A stretch of DNA of 64,000 nucleotides. It comes from Microcoleus sp. bin38.metabat.b11b12b14.051. GTDB lineage: Bacteria; Cyanobacteriota; Cyanobacteriia; Cyanobacteriales; Microcoleaceae. The position numbers and the translations under genes were made by a program. Positions within the stretch are counted from its first letter, which is position 1, and each line of letters opens with the position of its first letter. The notes below the pieces were generated by a model. It ran no database searches and was not told where the DNA came from. It saw only the letters and a program-made list of their open reading frames with translations. Location: contig NZ_JAAFKD010000001.1 in the NCBI RefSeq assembly GCF_013299165.1, positions 434,001-498,000 on the forward strand, written 5' to 3'. This document shows, piece by piece, positions 46,907-53,138 of this stretch.

Positions 46907-46935
46907 GCATACCAAGTTCTGTATGGAATGGCTCG

Positions 46936-47160
46936 TCAATATCTGTGAAACCGATTAAATAATGCGATCGATCGGCCCCATATTCTCCCTACATTTACAT
47001 CAACATCGATTAATTTATCTAAAAATAGTACGCCAGATAGGGCTGCACCGCGAATGATGTTGAGTATTATTAAATTGCGGAGTTCTATTGGTGCGGCTTG
47101 GATTATTAGCTCCAAGCTGCGCCGCAAAGCTTGGAATGTGGTAATTTGGATGGGCTGCAT
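46936..47160 (-). pseudogene. N-terminal fragment of an ABC transporter membrane domain
   Basis: The frame from ATG 47160 reads MQPIQITTFQALRRSLELII then QAAPIELRNLIILNIIRGAA, which looks like the first membrane helix of an ABC exporter of the kind LKLIWQAAPxELxLLI. After about 50 residues (FLDKLIDVDVN) the similarity ends and the rest of the transporter is missing. I read it as a truncated remnant. Expression of a short membrane peptide is possible. Confidence 0.45.
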
Positions 47161-47341
47161 AGTTTGTGGGTAGGTGTCGGGTCTACTCATTGCCTCCCGC
47201 TATATTATAACAGTATTTATTAACTGTTTGCCAAGTACAAACAGGTCACAGTATTAGTCAATATAAGTAGGTGAAATTCAAAAATTATAATTCCGAAATA
47301 CCGATCGATAAAATTCATTCAAACCCAGAATGCAATAAATA

Positions 47342-47866
47342 TTAGGCAGGTAAAACTTTAGCTCGTTGTTTAAAGCTTTTGAAGTCTATTACTCGTGATT
47401 TTTTAGCAGCTTCCCAAATATCATTAACGATATCAATTAATGGAGGTATCACCAGTAAAACGTACTGACCTACCTCTTTATTTTTTTTGCCAGCAACTTT
47501 GACGGTTGTGGGTATTCTATCGCTAAAATCAGACCAGTCTTGCTTCATCCAAAAAACTTCATCTCCAACTACAACTAACTGCTTATCTCTCAGACTGTTG
47601 TCATAACCGCTTTCATCTAAAAATTTGATGATTTTTCTGACTGTTTGTAAAGAAACATCTTTTCTTAAATGTTTAATTGCTCGAATTTCTAGTAACTGCT
47701 CCCAACTAAAAACTACAGTTGGTCTTCCATTATTTCCAAATCTCTCAGGAATAACTAAGCCTACTTTTTCTAAATAAGCCAGTCGGCTAGACGTGCAGCC
47801 CGCCAGATGTATTGTTTCTTGTCGTGTAAAGCCTGACATCTGGTTCATAGTGGTTTGCTTCCCCAT
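47342..47866 (-). CDS. MerR-like HTH transcriptional regulator
   Basis: A 174-residue protein. The N-terminal winged-HTH of MerR type is seen in SGFTRQETIHLAGCTSSRLA, YLEKVGLVIPERFGNNGRPT and FSWEQLLEIRAIKHLR. The C-terminal part, with DEVFWMKQDWSDFSDRIPTT and IVNDIWEAAKKSRVIDF, is a conserved cyanobacterial domain without a name I know. It is divergent from the methylase gene, 198 bases away. A 17-bp palindrome (47947-47963) lies between them in the promoter spacer, which suggests it controls itself and perhaps the cassette. Confidence 0.75.
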   Translation of the reverse strand: MGKQTTMNQMSGFTRQETIHLAGCTSSRLAYLEKVGLVIPERFGNNGRPTVVFSWEQLLEIRAIKHLRKDVSLQTVRKIIKFLDESGYDNSLRDKQLVVVGDEVFWMKQDWSDFSDRIPTTVKVAGKKNKEVGQYVLLVIPPLIDIVNDIWEAAKKSRVIDFKSFKQRAKVLPA

Positions 47867-47940
47867 TGCTTCCTGAAATTGTAGTTTTAACCTGCTGAGG
47901 CTAGAGCTTGTCTGGTATGGATGCTGTGCAACCTTAAAAA

Positions 47941-47969
47941 AGTATAACTTAATCCTATTAAGTCTGGCT
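47941..47969 (-). promoter_or_regulatory. Probable promoter of the MerR-like gene with 17-bp palindromic operator
   Basis: On the minus strand a -10-like TATACT (47941-47946) is preceded by the palindrome ACTTAAT-CCT-ATTAAGT (47947-47963), exactly 17 bp, in the position of the promoter spacer. The -35 hexamer (AGCCAG) is poor. MerR regulators typically bind such spacer palindromes. Binding by this regulator is inferred. Confidence 0.5.
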
Positions 47970-47992
47970 CATTAAAACATTGTTATACAAAT

Positions 47993-48022
47993 TTGACTTT
48001 TTGTAGAACAACGTGTTATTAT
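47993..48022 (+). promoter_or_regulatory. Sigma-70-type promoter of the methylase gene
   Basis: TTGACT (47993-47998) and TATTAT (48017-48022) are separated by 18 bases, 42 bases before the ATG at 48065. The palindrome lies 29 bases upstream of the -35 box. The match is good but was found by eye. Confidence 0.45.
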
Positions 48023-48064
48023 CGATCGTATTTAAAAGACTTTCGTAGTAAACATAACTTTGGT

Positions 48065-50815
48065 ATGGCTGGCTCACCGGGACTTGATTATGTAGTTGAA
48101 ACCGCAGAGGGAGTGTGGAAAATGCAGCCACACCGCAATGTGCGTATCCCGGTAGCCGGCAACGATCCTGTGGCTGTTAATGGTATATGGACAGATTATG
48201 GACTGCGCCCCAGTGCAACTAATCTGGCATTTATGGTTCAAGCTGTTCCGCCACAGGAGATGGATCAGTGGAAGCGGTGGCTGCGCGATTGGCCTTTTCG
48301 TGCGGGGCTGTTAGTCTCCGATGAGATGTATCTGCTTCAGTATTACGAGCCATCCGGCAAGTTAGAGGAACTAGAAATAGAACCTGATTCTCTGGCTGTA
48401 GAGTTGACTGCACCCAGAAGTCGCCTGTTTACACCAAAAGCATTAGCAGAGTTTCGTACTGGTCAGCTTTCACTGGCAGATTTAGAAGAGTCAATTTCGG
48501 AAAATAGCTTCTCCTTTATACTTCGACAACGAGCCGAACTTGATAAAGCATTTCAAGAGGCAATTCGGGGGGCACTTGAAGAGATTGGTGTTCCAAATCA
48601 GCGAACACATCCACAAAGCGTCATCTCCTCTCGCATACAGATAGCAGGTCATGCAATTCGCGTGGCGATCGCATATTTGGCAGCAAGAATTCTAGAGGAT
48701 AAAGGCTCTTTTGGTTCCGATTTGTTAATTCCAACCAACGATCCTCGAATTTTGCTCGATCGCACTGTATCTCGTGCGAATGGTTTTTTTAAGAAGGCGC
48801 TTGAGGAATCAATACCGCATTTAGGCGATCGAGTATTGCAGCATTTAGCTGCTAATTTAGGGAGTCGAGTCAGCTTTGCGCTAGTCGATCATAAGGATGT
48901 TGGCCTGCTATATGAACGAGCTATCAAAGAATTGCCTCGCGATATTGGAGGCACAGATTGGAGCGATTTACAAAGGCATTACACTCCAATCGCGATCGCA
49001 GAACGTATGCTTGAATTGCTTCCGTTGGAAAGGTTAAGACCAGAAGATCGAGTAATCTTCGATCCAGCCGCAGGTTCCGGTAGTCTCCTATTAGCTGCTA
49101 CATCTCGTCTTGCTGGGATGTCTGATATTCCTGAAGATATCAATGAGCGAAACACCTATTTGGCACAGCACGTAGCGGGTAATGATTTAGATCAATATGC
49201 AGACTTGATAACACAACTCCGATACACTTTGGCAAGAGAGTCGCTAGGTGAGGCTGTGACATTTCCATTCCCCTACCACTTTTCTCATCAGGATTACAAC
49301 AAACTAAACAGGGAAAACATGGGCATCAAACCGCGTGTTGTTGTTGCCAATCCTCCTTTTGCTGAAGATGGGAATACTCAACGTGCAGCAAAATTTATAG
49401 AAAGAGCTTTAAGTTGGTTAGAAGAAGAGGCTCAGTTTGCTTTTATCTTACCTCAGTCTTTTTTGACAGGTTCAACTCATGGCATACCAAATACACGTAG
49501 GTTGATAACTGAAAATTGCCAAATTTTTGAAGTATGGCAGTGTCCAGAAAAAGCTATTGGAATTGATGCAGAACAAGCTGTGTGCATTGTCTTAGGACAA
49601 GTAGGCAAACCAAAAATCATAATTCCTAGTGCAGCAAGAGCAGTATTTTCCAGACAAAAAGATACTGTATCTAATATTTGTAATAATGGTTTCCTTGGCA
49701 ATCAATGGATTACCCGATCAAATTCAGACAATTGGGAATTTTTTACGGCACCGCCTGTTTCCATGCAGATTCCTACAATACCTTTAGGAAATCTTTTCTT
49801 TGTTTTTAATGGAGTAACTCCTAGTAAAAACTACAAACCAGTTAGTCAATGTCCACCAAATACTGAATGTAAGCTAAACTGGCGTATGAAGTGGCGGGAT
49901 ACAAATCGGATTTGGGCAGATCCAGACAGAGTTGGAGAAGAGGAACGCTGGATAAGATACGGTAAAGAATTTCTTCATACAGCAGTCCTAAATAATTCAT
50001 ACCTATTCGATTTACCAAAAATTCTTGTAGGTCGTAAAGTGAATCGAGGCTCTTTGTATCCTCTTGCGGCTCAATTAGATACTACAGGTCTTTGTCCTGA
50101 TAATAATATATTTTGTATTTTTCCTGCCAAACAAGCAGGAAAATCTACTAAAGCATTGGGAAGTCAACAATTTTTAAAAGAATGGAACACATTAAGTTAT
50201 CAAGAACAAAGATTATGGCTGTTGGGTATCCTAGCTTCTAAAATAGTCAATGCACTATCTTTAATTGGACGCAAAACACATGAAATAACAAGTGATGAGC
50301 TATGTAAACTTCTCTTACCTCAAAAAATAGACAGGCGAATCATTGATATTACTCGTCAAATCGTTGAACGAGATCAACAACGTCTTGAAATTCCTAAACC
50401 AGATGATCTACGCAGACAATTAGATGAAATTGTCGAAGAATCTTATGGAAACCCTCATTGGATAGAAATTAAACGAACTGGAGAACCCCCAGAATTAGAA
50501 TTATGGAAATCAGAACGAACAAAGCCGACATTTATAGTGCGTGGTCAAGTTTTAGAAGTTTCTCAAGATAATAACCAAATTCATTTATATTTGAGTGGCT
50601 TATTAGATGACAATAGAGCAGACTGGATGCCAATTTTACCAGAAATGCCTGGTTGGGCGCTGGATGGTACAGTTTTTAAAGCTGAACTAAGTCAGGATGT
50701 AGAAACATTTGCAGAACTTGCCAAACGTCCTTGGGCTATTAGGCAATTTCGCCATACTCCTCGTCCTTATTTAACCGACGATGAGCTAAGAGAAGAATTA
50801 GGGATAGAGGAGTAA
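48065..50815 (+). CDS. N6-adenine DNA methylase, large stand-alone (type I/IIG-like)
   Basis: A 916-residue protein starting MAGSPGLDYVVETAEG. An N-terminal region of about 300 residues has no named domain. The methylase core begins with QRHYTPIAIAERML, followed by motif I FDPAAGSGS (Asp333) and motif IV NPPF (Asn429), the signature of HsdM-like gamma-class N6-adenine methylases. The C-terminal 400 residues probably recognise the target sequence. There is no restriction subunit, helicase or PD-(D/E)XK motif I can see. The next gene encodes an MBL-fold hydrolase 10 bases on. An earlier TTG start at 47993 falls in the promoter and is rejected. Confidence 0.85.
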   Translation: MAGSPGLDYVVETAEGVWKMQPHRNVRIPVAGNDPVAVNGIWTDYGLRPSATNLAFMVQAVPPQEMDQWKRWLRDWPFRAGLLVSDEMYLLQYYEPSGKLEELEIEPDSLAVELTAPRSRLFTPKALAEFRTGQLSLADLEESISENSFSFILRQRAELDKAFQEAIRGALEEIGVPNQRTHPQSVISSRIQIAGHAIRVAIAYLAARILEDKGSFGSDLLIPTNDPRILLDRTVSRANGFFKKALEESIPHLGDRVLQHLAANLGSRVSFALVDHKDVGLLYERAIKELPRDIGGTDWSDLQRHYTPIAIAERMLELLPLERLRPEDRVIFDPAAGSGSLLLAATSRLAGMSDIPEDINERNTYLAQHVAGNDLDQYADLITQLRYTLARESLGEAVTFPFPYHFSHQDYNKLNRENMGIKPRVVVANPPFAEDGNTQRAAKFIERALSWLEEEAQFAFILPQSFLTGSTHGIPNTRRLITENCQIFEVWQCPEKAIGIDAEQAVCIVLGQVGKPKIIIPSAARAVFSRQKDTVSNICNNGFLGNQWITRSNSDNWEFFTAPPVSMQIPTIPLGNLFFVFNGVTPSKNYKPVSQCPPNTECKLNWRMKWRDTNRIWADPDRVGEEERWIRYGKEFLHTAVLNNSYLFDLPKILVGRKVNRGSLYPLAAQLDTTGLCPDNNIFCIFPAKQAGKSTKALGSQQFLKEWNTLSYQEQRLWLLGILASKIVNALSLIGRKTHEITSDELCKLLLPQKIDRRIIDITRQIVERDQQRLEIPKPDDLRRQLDEIVEESYGNPHWIEIKRTGEPPELELWKSERTKPTFIVRGQVLEVSQDNNQIHLYLSGLLDDNRADWMPILPEMPGWALDGTVFKAELSQDVETFAELAKRPWAIRQFRHTPRPYLTDDELREELGIEE

Positions 50816-50825
50816 AATAAATTTT

Positions 50826-51860
50826 ATGACTTGTGAATTTGTTTTTTTACCAGTTAGCAATGCTGATAGCATGATTATCTATCCTAATGGCGGTTCAGCC
50901 GTTGTAATTGATCTGCATAAAATACCTACTCTTCTTAAATGGTTTCAAAATAAAAAAGAAACTAATATCAGCAGACTTTATATCACCCACGAACATCGCG
51001 ATCATTTTCCATCGCTTGAAGATTTAGTTACTTTTTTAGACAATTGGTTAAAAAGTGGAAAAGTAGGAAGTATTTGTCTACCTTATCAGGTATATCAACA
51101 AGCTAAGAAAAAAGTTGACTCCGACAGAGCAGCGAATAAACGTCTTGAAGATGCCTTAGATCAACTACGACGCTGGGAAAAAAAGAGCATTATAAATTTT
51201 ATAGAAGTTACTCGCGGCTCAAATCCCTACTCTCAAGATTTCTTAGAAATTCATGTTTTACATCCAGGGCTTTTATATGCTCAGGAGCATCTCGCCAGCA
51301 TTAAAGGTAGAGGTAACGAAATATCTGTAGTGCTGCGCGTTACTTATGGAAATTTTGCAGCAGTGCTACTTGCAGATATCGAAGGGGCTGGACTTAAGGA
51401 TTGTGTGGATATTTGCAAACCTCATGAACTTAACGCTAACCTCTTAAAAATTCCCCATCACGGAGCATGGCCTAACAATGGGGATGATCTCAAGCAATTA
51501 CTCGAAGCTATTGATGCAGAAATAGCAGTTTTATCAGTCGGTAGCACCAATAATTATGGTCATGTAGTTCCCGATCTATTTGATTTGCTATTACATCTAA
51601 AAAATGATACTTCTAAGCGATTGAAAAAATTTGCCTGTACCGAAGTTACTCGAACCTGCGTTAAATCAGCAATCGAAAGGTCTGCGATGAAAAAATCTGG
51701 ATTAGATAAGCAAAAATTCTGTGCTGGAGAAATTACGATTATTGCCGAAACTTCTGGTGAATGGCAGCTTAAAACACAGACTGTTCACGAAGATATAATC
51801 TCATCGCTTCCACGCGCAGCCTGCCAGGGAAAGGCTGACTTGGGCATAATTTCTCCTTAA
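50826..51860 (+). CDS. MBL-fold (ComEC/Rec2-like) metallo-hydrolase
   Basis: A 344-residue metallo-beta-lactamase-fold protein. The metal motif THEHRDH (His55, His57, Asp59, His60) is complete. Later ligands are visible in VLLADIEGAGL and LLKIPHHGAWPNN, and a ComEC-type NNYGHV motif follows. Relatives cleave nucleic acids or phosphoesters. The gene begins 10 bases after the methylase stop and is surely co-expressed with it. A nuclease paired with a methylase suggests a restriction-like system in which the MBL protein is the effector. That pairing is inference. Confidence 0.83.
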   Translation: MTCEFVFLPVSNADSMIIYPNGGSAVVIDLHKIPTLLKWFQNKKETNISRLYITHEHRDHFPSLEDLVTFLDNWLKSGKVGSICLPYQVYQQAKKKVDSDRAANKRLEDALDQLRRWEKKSIINFIEVTRGSNPYSQDFLEIHVLHPGLLYAQEHLASIKGRGNEISVVLRVTYGNFAAVLLADIEGAGLKDCVDICKPHELNANLLKIPHHGAWPNNGDDLKQLLEAIDAEIAVLSVGSTNNYGHVVPDLFDLLLHLKNDTSKRLKKFACTEVTRTCVKSAIERSAMKKSGLDKQKFCAGEITIIAETSGEWQLKTQTVHEDIISSLPRAACQGKADLGIISP

Positions 51861-51924
51861 TCTAAAAAGTTAATCTTAGTAAGTACGAGTTATTCTTTTG
51901 GAATGCAGGCAATATTCAATTCTT

Positions 51925-52165
51925 GTATCCAAATATCAAACGCCGCATCGTATCGTCATCTGTAAATCGCTGTTCCCCAATCCCAACAACTTATACAGTA
52001 ATTTCGCGCTCTAAAATCGCAAACTCTTCCTCGCGCGCGGCAATTTCAACGATGATTTTCCCCCTTCCAAATACACCTAATAATTAGTCGTTGCCCAGGC
52101 ACTGTTTTCATATTCAAAACTGTGTCCGTCGTCTTCATAAAGCGTCCATTCGCCAGTTTATGGTT
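51925..52165 (-). pseudogene. C-terminal relic of a GH31 alpha-glucosidase
   Basis: On the minus strand, one frame reads GEWTLYEDDGHSFEYENSAW then ATTNY and stop. A second frame continues as GKIIVEIAAREEEFAILERE then ITV, stop, VVGIGEQRFTDDD. These fit the C-terminal domain of glycoside hydrolase family 31 (LYEDDGHSxxY). At least one frameshift and two stops mark it as decayed. The catalytic domain is missing. Confidence 0.65.
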
Positions 52166-52204
52166 TTTGTGGCTGTTGAGAGAGTGTCGGTACAGATGCT
52201 CTGG

Positions 52205-52699
52205 TTATGCAGAACTCCGCTCCCCTTGACGCGGCTCAAAGGCATTTGCTAAAATAGTGAGAATAGCTGGATTTTTGTTGGTTTGATGCTGTTGTTGAAT
52301 GGCAACTTTAGCTCGTTCCAATAAAGGAATCAGAGGAGTTCCGGGTTTTTGATTGGTAATCGATCGCACATTCTTCTGACATTCCCCCATCAGCGTCAAA
52401 CTATTGAAGATGGAGACGGGTTGAGTGACGACGGCGCGATCGGCAAAAGGAATGCTAACAGCGGTATCTCCCGGTTTATAATGTTGGCTGCTGAGTTGAC
52501 AGTGGGTTTGACGCTGCAAGTTGTAGCGATCGGCAGAAAGCGAATTATCATCCGCGCGGTAGTGTACGATCGGCTGATTGGCGAATTCCGGGTAAAGAAA
52601 AGCTCCAAAGGCGATCGCGCTCACACCCAAAGCAGCTACGATCGCAGGAGACTTGTACCAAGATTTCTCTGATTCAGTTGTATAATTAATTGTCATCAT
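52205..52699 (-). CDS. Hypothetical protein with N-terminal membrane anchor
   Basis: A 164-residue protein starting MMTINYTTESEKSWYKSPAI, with one hydrophobic segment at about residues 18-38 (AIVAALGVSAIAFGAFLYP) and a soluble, probably periplasmic, remainder. A GGAGG site stands before the ATG at 52699. A longer frame from 52774 would start inside that leader and is rejected. The soluble part has two cysteines (THCQL and GECQK) that could form a disulfide. I do not recognise the family. Confidence 0.65.
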   Translation of the reverse strand: MMTINYTTESEKSWYKSPAIVAALGVSAIAFGAFLYPEFANQPIVHYRADDNSLSADRYNLQRQTHCQLSSQHYKPGDTAVSIPFADRAVVTQPVSIFNSLTLMGECQKNVRSITNQKPGTPLIPLLERAKVAIQQQHQTNKNPAILTILANAFEPRQGERSSA

Positions 52700-52928
52700 G
52701 ACTCCTCCATTGCGCTTCTGAAGAGGTATCGCAGAGTCACCAGGGTTTATGCAAGTTCCAAAGGTCGATCGCACCCAACAACATAATCTATCATTGTTCA
52801 GTGTGCGTCGCCATTCCAGAATACAAACAACAATGTCATTACGAGCTCTTGAAACAATCCCAGAACCCCGGCGATTGCTTCGCTAAGAGCTCGCAATGAC
52901 ATATAATATCTCGCGTAAATTGCAGTTT

Positions 52929-53138
52929 CTACAGTTTGTCGATCGCCTTTTTGGCCTTATCCGTCAGATTTTTCACAGCATCTTTCATATCTTCTGCTGC
53001 GTGGCGGGCGGCGGATTCCGCTTGTTTTGCTTTGCCTTCAGCTTGGTCTTTTTTGTTGCCGGTGATGTTCCCGAAAATTTCCTGAGCTTTGCCTTCTACG
53101 TTTTTGCCGATCGCCTTTGCTCTGTCTTCTGTACTCAT
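52929..53138 (-). CDS. CsbD family stress protein
   Basis: A 69-residue CsbD-like protein: KNVEGKAQEIFGNITGNKKD followed by a Lys/Glu/Ala-rich amphipathic helix. A GGAG site precedes the ATG at 53138. The family is induced by general stress in bacteria, but its molecular role is unknown. It stands alone between repeats. Confidence 0.88.
   Translation of the reverse strand: MSTEDRAKAIGKNVEGKAQEIFGNITGNKKDQAEGKAKQAESAARHAAEDMKDAVKNLTDKAKKAIDKL

What the first reader, a model, noticed from the sequence alone, without database searches (positions are those of the whole stretch)
47342..51860. Candidate undescribed defence cassette: MerR-like regulator, stand-alone N6-adenine methylase and MBL-fold hydrolase
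The methylase has intact catalytic motifs (FDPAAGSGS, NPPF) and an unassigned 300-residue N-terminal region, but no HsdR, helicase or visible PD-(D/E)XK nuclease. Instead, 10 bases downstream, an MBL-fold protein with complete THEHRDH metal motif and ComEC-like NNYGHV follows, and a divergent HTH regulator lies upstream. The cassette is flanked by gene relics (ABC fragment, GH31 tail), typical of an acquired island. I know of no named system with exactly this composition, but could not search.
Basis: partly seen in the sequence, partly recalled or inferred. Interest (0 to 1): 0.82.

Follow-up and report, generated by a model that had tools for sequence, protein, structure and literature searches.

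The report
Methylase–MBL nuclease restriction-like cassette
A small cyanobacterial gene cassette pairs a DNA-marking enzyme, whose target-reading part has been swapped between relatives, with a protein related to a known DNA-cutting domain, which makes it a likely but untested restriction-type virus defence not named in the catalogues searched.

Summary
The pair is conserved: in two searches of 386 cyanobacterial genomes, the same five hold an intact methylase and an intact MBL protein. Of 11 intact methylase loci found by all routes, 10 have an intact MBL gene directly downstream; the eleventh has an internally deleted MBL gene. Methylase residues ~481-780 are exchanged between otherwise similar relatives, as expected of a target-recognition domain. 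A 32-bp palindrome overlapping a promoter-like site occurs in 3 of 3 loci with divergent MerR and 0 of 5 without MerR. The genomic site is variable and holds a candidate defence pair in three relatives. The best PDB matches of the MBL are ComEC domains. PADLOC and NCBIfam scans did not name the pair; NCBIfam "6A-MBL" is a Cap2/Cap3 system. Best reading: restriction-modification-like, with an MBL-fold nuclease.

The parts
47342..47866 (-). MerR-type regulator (174 aa; relatives L033 and L034 start at the ATG of MNQMSG, about 47848)
   Evidence: Pfam MerR_1 3.2e-6; homologues beside the pair in 6 of 11 intact methylase loci counting the window
47980..48011 (.). Putative MerR operator: TTGTTATACAAA-N8-TTTGTAGAACAA
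   Evidence: In the 200-500 bp upstream stretches scanned: found in 3 of 3 loci with divergent MerR (window, L034, L033 with one mismatch), 0 of 5 without MerR, 0 of 3 with co-directional MerR; the only site in the window with 4 or fewer mismatches to the consensus
47993..48022 (+). Promoter-like site of the methylase-MBL operon (TTGACT-18-TATTAT, TG before the second hexamer), overlapping the palindrome
   Evidence: Tied for the best match (10 of 12 bases) among 12 sites in 47300-52200; the total is no more than in shuffles (mean 12.2), so only its position speaks for it
48065..50815 (+). N6-adenine-type DNA methyltransferase, 916 aa, type IIG-like layout
   Evidence: N6_Mtase, Eco57I; 11 intact family members counting the window
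48065..48514 (+). N-terminal 150 residues, family-specific; W-T-D...F-x-x-Q-x-V looks by eye like a PD-(D/E)XK core whose E-x-K has become Q-x-V (inference)
   Evidence: Invariant residues in 11 sequences; four members scanned against Pfam gave only one sub-cut-off DUF2800 match in L089 at E 0.071; hhalign to HSDR_N_2 E 0.057, not significant; in 386 genomes the profile found only family members and one match at E 0.03 judged chance
49058..49360 (+). Methylase motif I (FDPAAGSGS, residues 332-340) to motif IV (NPPF, 429-432)
   Evidence: Both kept in 11 of 11 intact members, except A336, which is S in L089
49505..50404 (+). Target-recognition region (residues about 481-780), exchanged between relatives; 36% G+C against 47% in the 5' part
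   Evidence: Identity falls to 52-60% over residues 481-720 in two pairs that are 83-100% alike over residues 1-360; G+C
50826..51860 (+). ComEC-like MBL-fold protein, 344 aa, predicted nuclease or effector; H55-x-H57-x-D59-H60, D184, H211-H212, H246 and four cysteines C271, C278, C299, C333 invariant
   Evidence: PDB ComEC chains, best 3.3e-15; residues kept in 10 of 10 intact MBL proteins; PADLOC LmuA 4.6e-8 and RTasMBL 1.3e-7 for the window's protein, 3.8e-15 and 5.8e-16 for relative L038
46909..52929 (.). Variable site between xseB and a csbD-like gene that holds the cassette
   Evidence: Of 11 genus relatives fetched, 9 span the site: flanks 205-422 bp apart in L117, L121 and L125; other genes in L118, L120, L122, L124, L126, L127; L119 and L123 show no downstream match

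Best explanation
A self-contained restriction-modification-like defence cassette. The 916-aa methylase recognises a DNA sequence through its exchangeable region (about residues 481-780) and methylates adenine there, marking host DNA as self. The MBL-fold partner, a relative of the DNA-cutting domain of ComEC, is the nuclease or toxic effector: when the methylase meets unmodified target sites on incoming DNA, it recruits or licenses the MBL protein to cut that DNA, since the ComEC MBL domain binds DNA very weakly on its own. The MerR protein binds the 32-bp palindrome near the methylase promoter and restrains the operon, much as control proteins do in classical R-M systems. Shown: gene pairing, kept catalytic residues, exchange of a specificity-like region, purifying selection on both genes, palindrome co-occurring with divergent MerR, presence at a variable site. 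Inferred: methylation, cleavage, recruitment, repression and phage defence.
For: Co-occurrence: the same 5 genomes hold intact copies of both in two searches of 386. Adjacency with gaps from -4 to +17 bp in 10 of 11 intact methylase loci. The eleventh (L032) keeps the methylase but has an internally deleted MBL gene, and none of the loci fetched has an intact MBL gene with a broken methylase, the order of loss expected if the methylase is the antidote. Exchange of residues about 481-780 in L087/L038 and L094/L036. dN/dS 0.15-0.36 for both genes in six pairs. MBL motif residues kept, 10 of 10. Best PDB matches are ComEC chains; the ComEC beta-lactamase-like domain cuts DNA, and its activity rises when a DNA-binding domain is on the same chain (PMC12455585, abstract and passages). 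The MBL profile aligns along its length with an MBL that follows a histidine kinase in L031 and scores against MBL parts of DRT, Lamassu and Avs1 systems. The same genomic site holds an NsnB/PDC-M55-like ATPase gene in three relatives (L118, L122, L124).
Against: No functional data. Rare (5 intact in 386 genomes) and, as far as searched, only cyanobacterial. No relatives of the methylase in phage records or viral contigs. Surroundings are mixed: of ten proteins, eight were flank genes of three relatives (L036, L033, L038), and only some resemble PADLOC models (an AbiLi/AriA-like ATPase about 5 kb from the L036 pair, for example). The MBL N-terminal half and the methylase tail are exchanged together in L035 while the recognition region stays 80-100% identical, so something other than site specificity also drives variation. 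ComEC's in vitro activity does not prove that this MBL cuts DNA. That the methylase contacts the MBL is not shown. dS reaches 1.3 in some pairs and recombination is present, so the dN/dS values are rough.
Confidence: 0.52

Rival explanations
1. BREX-like or abortive defence: the methylase marks self, but the MBL protein acts on RNA, nucleotides or a signal molecule after infection is sensed, rather than cutting the unmodified DNA.
For: MBL proteins of this type score against parts of several other defence systems (LmuA, DRT-associated MBL, Avs1a models), and a homologue lies behind a histidine kinase and a receiver-like gene in L031, with similar clusters by eye in L010 and L014, where no methylase is seen to guide it. 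BREX systems use a site-specific methylase and none appears to contain a nuclease (PMC9122589, passages).
Against: Best PDB matches are ComEC chains, and that domain cuts DNA (PMC12455585). The conserved unit is only two or three genes; no ATPase or sensor gene travels with it in the loci compared (by eye).
Confidence: 0.22
2. Type IIG-like enzyme whose own N-terminal domain cuts, with the MBL protein an accessory or repair factor.
For: The N-terminal 150 residues resemble a PD-(D/E)XK core by eye, and hhalign puts part of them in the expected register.
Against: The profile match is not significant (E 0.057, probability 1%), and at the expected E-x-K the family has invariant Q and V.
Confidence: 0.1
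3. Not a defence system: an epigenetic or DNA-uptake module that stabilises a mobile element or processes transforming DNA.
For: ComEC-like MBL; one copy on a plasmid and one beside TnsB-like, TniB and TniQ genes; MerR gene in 6 of 11 loci.
Against: Exchange of the specificity-like region, the order of loss and the defence-type occupants of the same site fit defence or selfish restriction better; the MBL is a stand-alone protein without the ComEC channel.
Confidence: 0.12

Closest known systems
Type IIG / type I restriction-modification (methylase with recognition domain)
   Same: N6-adenine methylase core with motifs I and IV, about 300 residues before it, an exchangeable region after it; PADLOC MTase_I 3.5e-11, MTase_II 3.3e-9, weaker IIG matches
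   Different: No recognisable active nuclease or helicase domain by Pfam; an MBL gene instead
BREX PglX and MADS MAD2 methylases
   Same: Weak NCBIfam matches in the methylase core (16.8 of 500 and 24.4 of 720 bits); PADLOC mad2 8.2e-11
   Different: Far below the curated cut-offs; no other BREX or MADS genes recognised by eye beside it, though one L038 neighbour matches part of mad1 at 1.8e-9
NCBIfam 6A-MBL system
   Same: An MBL protein with 26 bits similarity
   Different: Its partner model NF058523 is 6A-MBL_cap2_3, not an adenine methylase; the window's MBL is far below the 220-bit cut-off
DRT-associated MBL, Lamassu LmuA (MBL), Avs1a, PDC-M48B
   Same: Homologous MBL fold, PADLOC E 4.6e-8 for the window's protein and down to 5.8e-16 for relative L038
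   Different: Partners there are a reverse transcriptase, SMC-like or STAND ATPase (recalled) or, in PDC-M48, a 125-position protein (one PDC-M48A model seen), not a methylase
ComEC beta-lactamase-like domain
   Same: Best PDB matches, 3.3e-15 over profile positions 125-253
   Different: Stand-alone 344-aa protein with a four-cysteine C-terminal part; no channel or OB domain; HxHxDH where the Moorella glycerini domain has H-x-D-x-D-H (PMC12455585, passage)
C-protein-controlled R-M systems
   Same: Small HTH protein with a palindrome by the operon promoter
   Different: MerR-type rather than Xre-type (recalled); no MerR found in the flanks of 5 of 11 loci

Membership tests
Restriction-modification system | DNA methyltransferase with intact catalytic motifs | tested here: met
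   FDPAAGSGS and NPPF kept in 11 of 11 intact members apart from A336S in L089; activity itself not tested
Restriction-modification system | Exchangeable target-recognition region | tested here: met
   Identity dip to 52-60% over residues 481-720 in L087/L038 and L094/L036; that it reads DNA is inferred
Restriction-modification system | Cognate restriction endonuclease acting on unmodified sites | not testable with these tools
   The MBL is a ComEC-like predicted nuclease; no cleavage data
Type IIG enzyme | Nuclease active site on the same chain | tested here: inconclusive
   The E-x-K position reads Q-x-V in all 11; hhalign to HSDR_N_2 E 0.057; structure prediction switched off
BREX | PglX above the curated cut-off, with other BREX genes nearby | tested here: not met
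   PglX 16.8 of 500 bits; neighbours judged by eye only
MADS | MAD2 above the curated cut-off | tested here: not met
   24.4 of 720 bits; 24.4 and 22.9 for two distant relatives
6A-MBL (NCBIfam) | MBL above 220 bits with a Cap2/Cap3 protein | tested here: not met
   26.3 bits; the partner model's two sub-cut-off hits in this genome are on other contigs
PDC-M48 (PADLOC candidate) | PDC-M48A partner | tested here: inconclusive
   One PDC-M48A model gave no hit in the window's genome, but its control rang nowhere; the methylase matched no PDC model at E up to 1

The most novel reading that the evidence does not exclude
A restriction-modification class whose restriction nuclease is an MBL-fold protein, guided in trans by an IIG-like methylase in which the ancestral nuclease domain has died: the cutting job was handed from a PD-(D/E)XK domain to a separate ComEC-like protein that docks on the methylase tail.
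Probability: 0.35. Interest if true: 0.82.

Novelty: new variant of a known kind. Interest (0 to 1): 0.66.

Why it matters
If true, it would add the MBL fold to the nuclease folds used for restriction (recalled list: PD-(D/E)XK, HNH, PLD, GIY-YIG, half-pipe) and give a two-gene, methylation-guided system small enough to move between hosts. It would also tie a recurring defence-type effector, the ComEC-like MBL with four C-terminal cysteines, related here to MBL proteins of kinase-linked, reverse-transcriptase, Lamassu and Avs systems, to a testable molecular job, because methylation status gives a clean switch to assay.

Tried and rejected
Rejected: the 6A-MBL name as evidence of a known adenine-methylase system. 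Not supported: a PDC-M48 system (weak test). N-terminal domain as a Pfam family: four members scanned, only DUF2800 in L089 at E 0.071, below cut-off. N-terminal domain against 15 HSDR_N_2 domains by hhalign: register as expected, not significant (E 0.057); control against the MBL profile E 0.43. N-terminal profile over 386 genomes: family members and one match at E 0.03 in a frame that I judged chance (at most ten first-look candidates scored per genome). PDB search with the methylase profile: nothing at 0.01; EcoKI M protein at 0.41. MerR against the PDB: best 0.024, to an unrelated protein. Viral contigs: no methylase relative, one weak MBL fragment not followed. Phage records: no methylase, five weak MBL matches. 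Plasmids: one methylase record; eleven MBL records, of which ten are weak partial matches. NF058524 over 244 phylum genomes: none above cut-off; the weak hits are mostly long frames that look like ComEC. Literature: ten searches of the held library, seven aimed at the pair or its name and three at related subjects; none of the listings showed a methylase-MBL defence pair, but searches listed only 8 of 2,531 and 10 of 74 papers, and the library lacks most subscription papers. Distance correlation over 45 pairs: the methylase C-terminus tracks the MBL N-half (0.84, against 0.54-0.62 for the other methylase parts), while the MBL C-half tracks the methylase N-terminus and core (0.87-0.89); the stretches in the first case are neighbours on the DNA, so one recombination tract explains it as well as contact does.

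Rows left out before counts: broken copies L037, L090-L093 and L095 were left out of alignments and selection tests; L032 was left out of MBL counts because its MBL gene is deleted internally. L034 and L036 are taken as the same contigs as G262:C191 and G153:C95 (equal contig lengths and positions) and counted once.

Full report
Observation. The window is part of a 7.07-Mb genome in 64 contigs (G000:C1:434001-498000); the named relatives of its methylase are cyanobacteria. Frames of relatives and the alignment place the methylase start at ATG 48065, giving 916 residues.

Conservation of the pair. Close relatives of the methylase in the genome collection gave 6 of 6 loci with an MBL gene, or its remains, directly downstream; in L032 the MBL gene has an internal deletion, and in L037 the methylase is broken and only MBL residues 1-94 are matched near the contig end. 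A Pseudanabaena galeata plasmid carries MerR, methylase and MBL on one strand, the last two overlapping by 4 bp. Searches of whole genomes added L087, L088, L089 and L094. In two searches of 386 phylum genomes drawn the same way, a full-length methylase occurs in G000, G262, G048, G153 and G346, and a full-length MBL in the same five; fragments of the methylase occur in four more genomes (G101, G105, G155, G385) and fragments of the MBL in two of those (G155, G385). In 195 genomes of the order, five have the MBL, and all five have the methylase beside it. No locus fetched shows an intact MBL with a broken methylase.

Anatomy of the methylase. Motifs I and IV are kept in 11 of 11 members, with one A336S exception. 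Identity between L087 and L038 is 91-100% over residues 1-360, 53-60% over 481-720 and 76-89% over 781-900; between L094 and L036 it is 83-98%, 52-58% and 92-93%. Two separate pairs thus show exchange of the same stretch, the pattern expected when a target-recognition domain moves (specificity change through domain movement in methylases is described in PMC3983042, seen only in a search listing). The stretch is also lower in G+C in the window (36% against 47%). The first 150 residues reach no Pfam cut-off in four members scanned and were found only in this family in 386 genomes, apart from one match judged chance. By eye they follow the order of a PD-(D/E)XK core with Q-x-V in place of E-x-K; a comparison with 15 HSDR_N_2 domains aligned a 29-column part in the expected register but without significance. 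I treat a dead nuclease domain as a lead only.

The MBL protein. A family profile finds four chains in the PDB at E 0.01 or better, all ComEC or competence proteins, best 3.3e-15. The ComEC beta-lactamase-like domain is a Mn2+-dependent endonuclease and 5'-3' exonuclease that works better when the DNA-binding OB fold is on the same chain (PMC12455585, abstract and passages). Eight motif residues and four C-terminal cysteines are invariant in 10 of 10 intact proteins. The family profile aligns over 304 columns (E 4.5e-13) with the MBL of L031, which follows a histidine kinase and a receiver-like gene; L010 and L014 look alike by eye. PADLOC gives LmuA, RTasMBL and, for distant relatives, Avs1a among the nearest models. 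The protein therefore looks like a defence-type effector used with several sensors, here with a methylase.

Regulation. A 32-bp inverted repeat lies at 47980-48011 and overlaps a promoter-like site in front of the methylase. In the stretches scanned it is present in the three loci with a divergent MerR gene and absent from the five loci without MerR; the three loci with co-directional MerR lack it and show other repeats that I did not test further. MerR control is inferred.

Genomic site. Of 11 genus relatives fetched, 9 span the site between xseB and the csbD-like gene. The flanks are 205-422 bp apart in L117, L121 and L125. Other relatives hold an ATPase of NsnB/PDC-M55 type in all three of L118, L122 and L124 (the ATPase scanned in all three, the partner scanned only in L118, where it matches PDC-M55B at 1.9e-7), a WD40 protein (L120), or genes that in L127 encode CHAT-TPR and DUF1822 proteins, with a similar layout by eye in L126. 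The site therefore takes up different cargo, some of it of defence type. Around the pair in other genomes the picture is mixed: an AbiLi/AriA-like ATPase lies about 5 kb from the L036 pair, and an L033 neighbour matches PDC-S03, but most flanks were not scanned.

Selection. dN/dS is 0.15-0.36 in all 12 comparisons made (six pairs, two genes each), so both products appear to be maintained; dS reaches 1.3 and recombination is present, so the values are rough.

Comparison with known systems. The methylase reaches no BREX, MADS or Alw26I cut-off, and the MBL reaches no 6A-MBL, Avs1a or ComEC cut-off. The 6A-MBL partner is a Cap2/Cap3 model. Seven literature searches of the held library aimed at the pair or its name listed no such system. 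I therefore call it a new variant of the restriction-modification kind, with the decisive nuclease and defence steps untested.

Noticed in passing
L031 19-2484, L010 1432-3789, L014 316-2493: A histidine kinase, a receiver-like gene and an MBL homologous to the window's (tested for L031) form a three-gene cluster in three other genomes, L010 and L014 judged by eye; PADLOC does not recognise the first two genes of L031 at E 0.01. It may be another MBL-armed defence operon.
   Followed up: partly
L088 4901-12582: The methylase-MBL pair of G461 lies beside TnsB-like, TniB and TniQ genes, so it may be Tn7-like transposon cargo; no Cas12k was recognised by eye on the contig, and none was searched for by profile.
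   Followed up: partly
window 46909-52929; L118, L122, L124: The xseB-csbD interval is a variable-gene site in this genus; three relatives carry an NsnB/PDC-M55-like ATPase and a partner there.
   Followed up: yes
L036 1690-3632: An AbiLi/AriA-like ATPase gene overlapping a second gene that PADLOC does not recognise, about 5 kb upstream of the pair; possibly another defence pair.
   Followed up: partly
L035 10781-11824 against L036 10778-11815: The MBL N-terminal half and the methylase tail are exchanged together while the recognition region stays nearly the same, hinting at a matched contact or one recombination tract.
   Followed up: partly
L032 10751-10984: MBL gene reduced to a 77-codon stop-to-stop frame by an internal deletion while the methylase stays intact.
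   Followed up: yes
window 51861-52210, - strand: A remnant reading GEWTLYEDDGHSFEYENSAWATTNY looks like the tail of a GH31 glycosidase (recalled).
   Followed up: no
window 47081-47237 and 52763-52904: Two short stretches shared at 91-94% identity with relative L120 bracket the cassette and may mark the older layout of the site.
   Followed up: no
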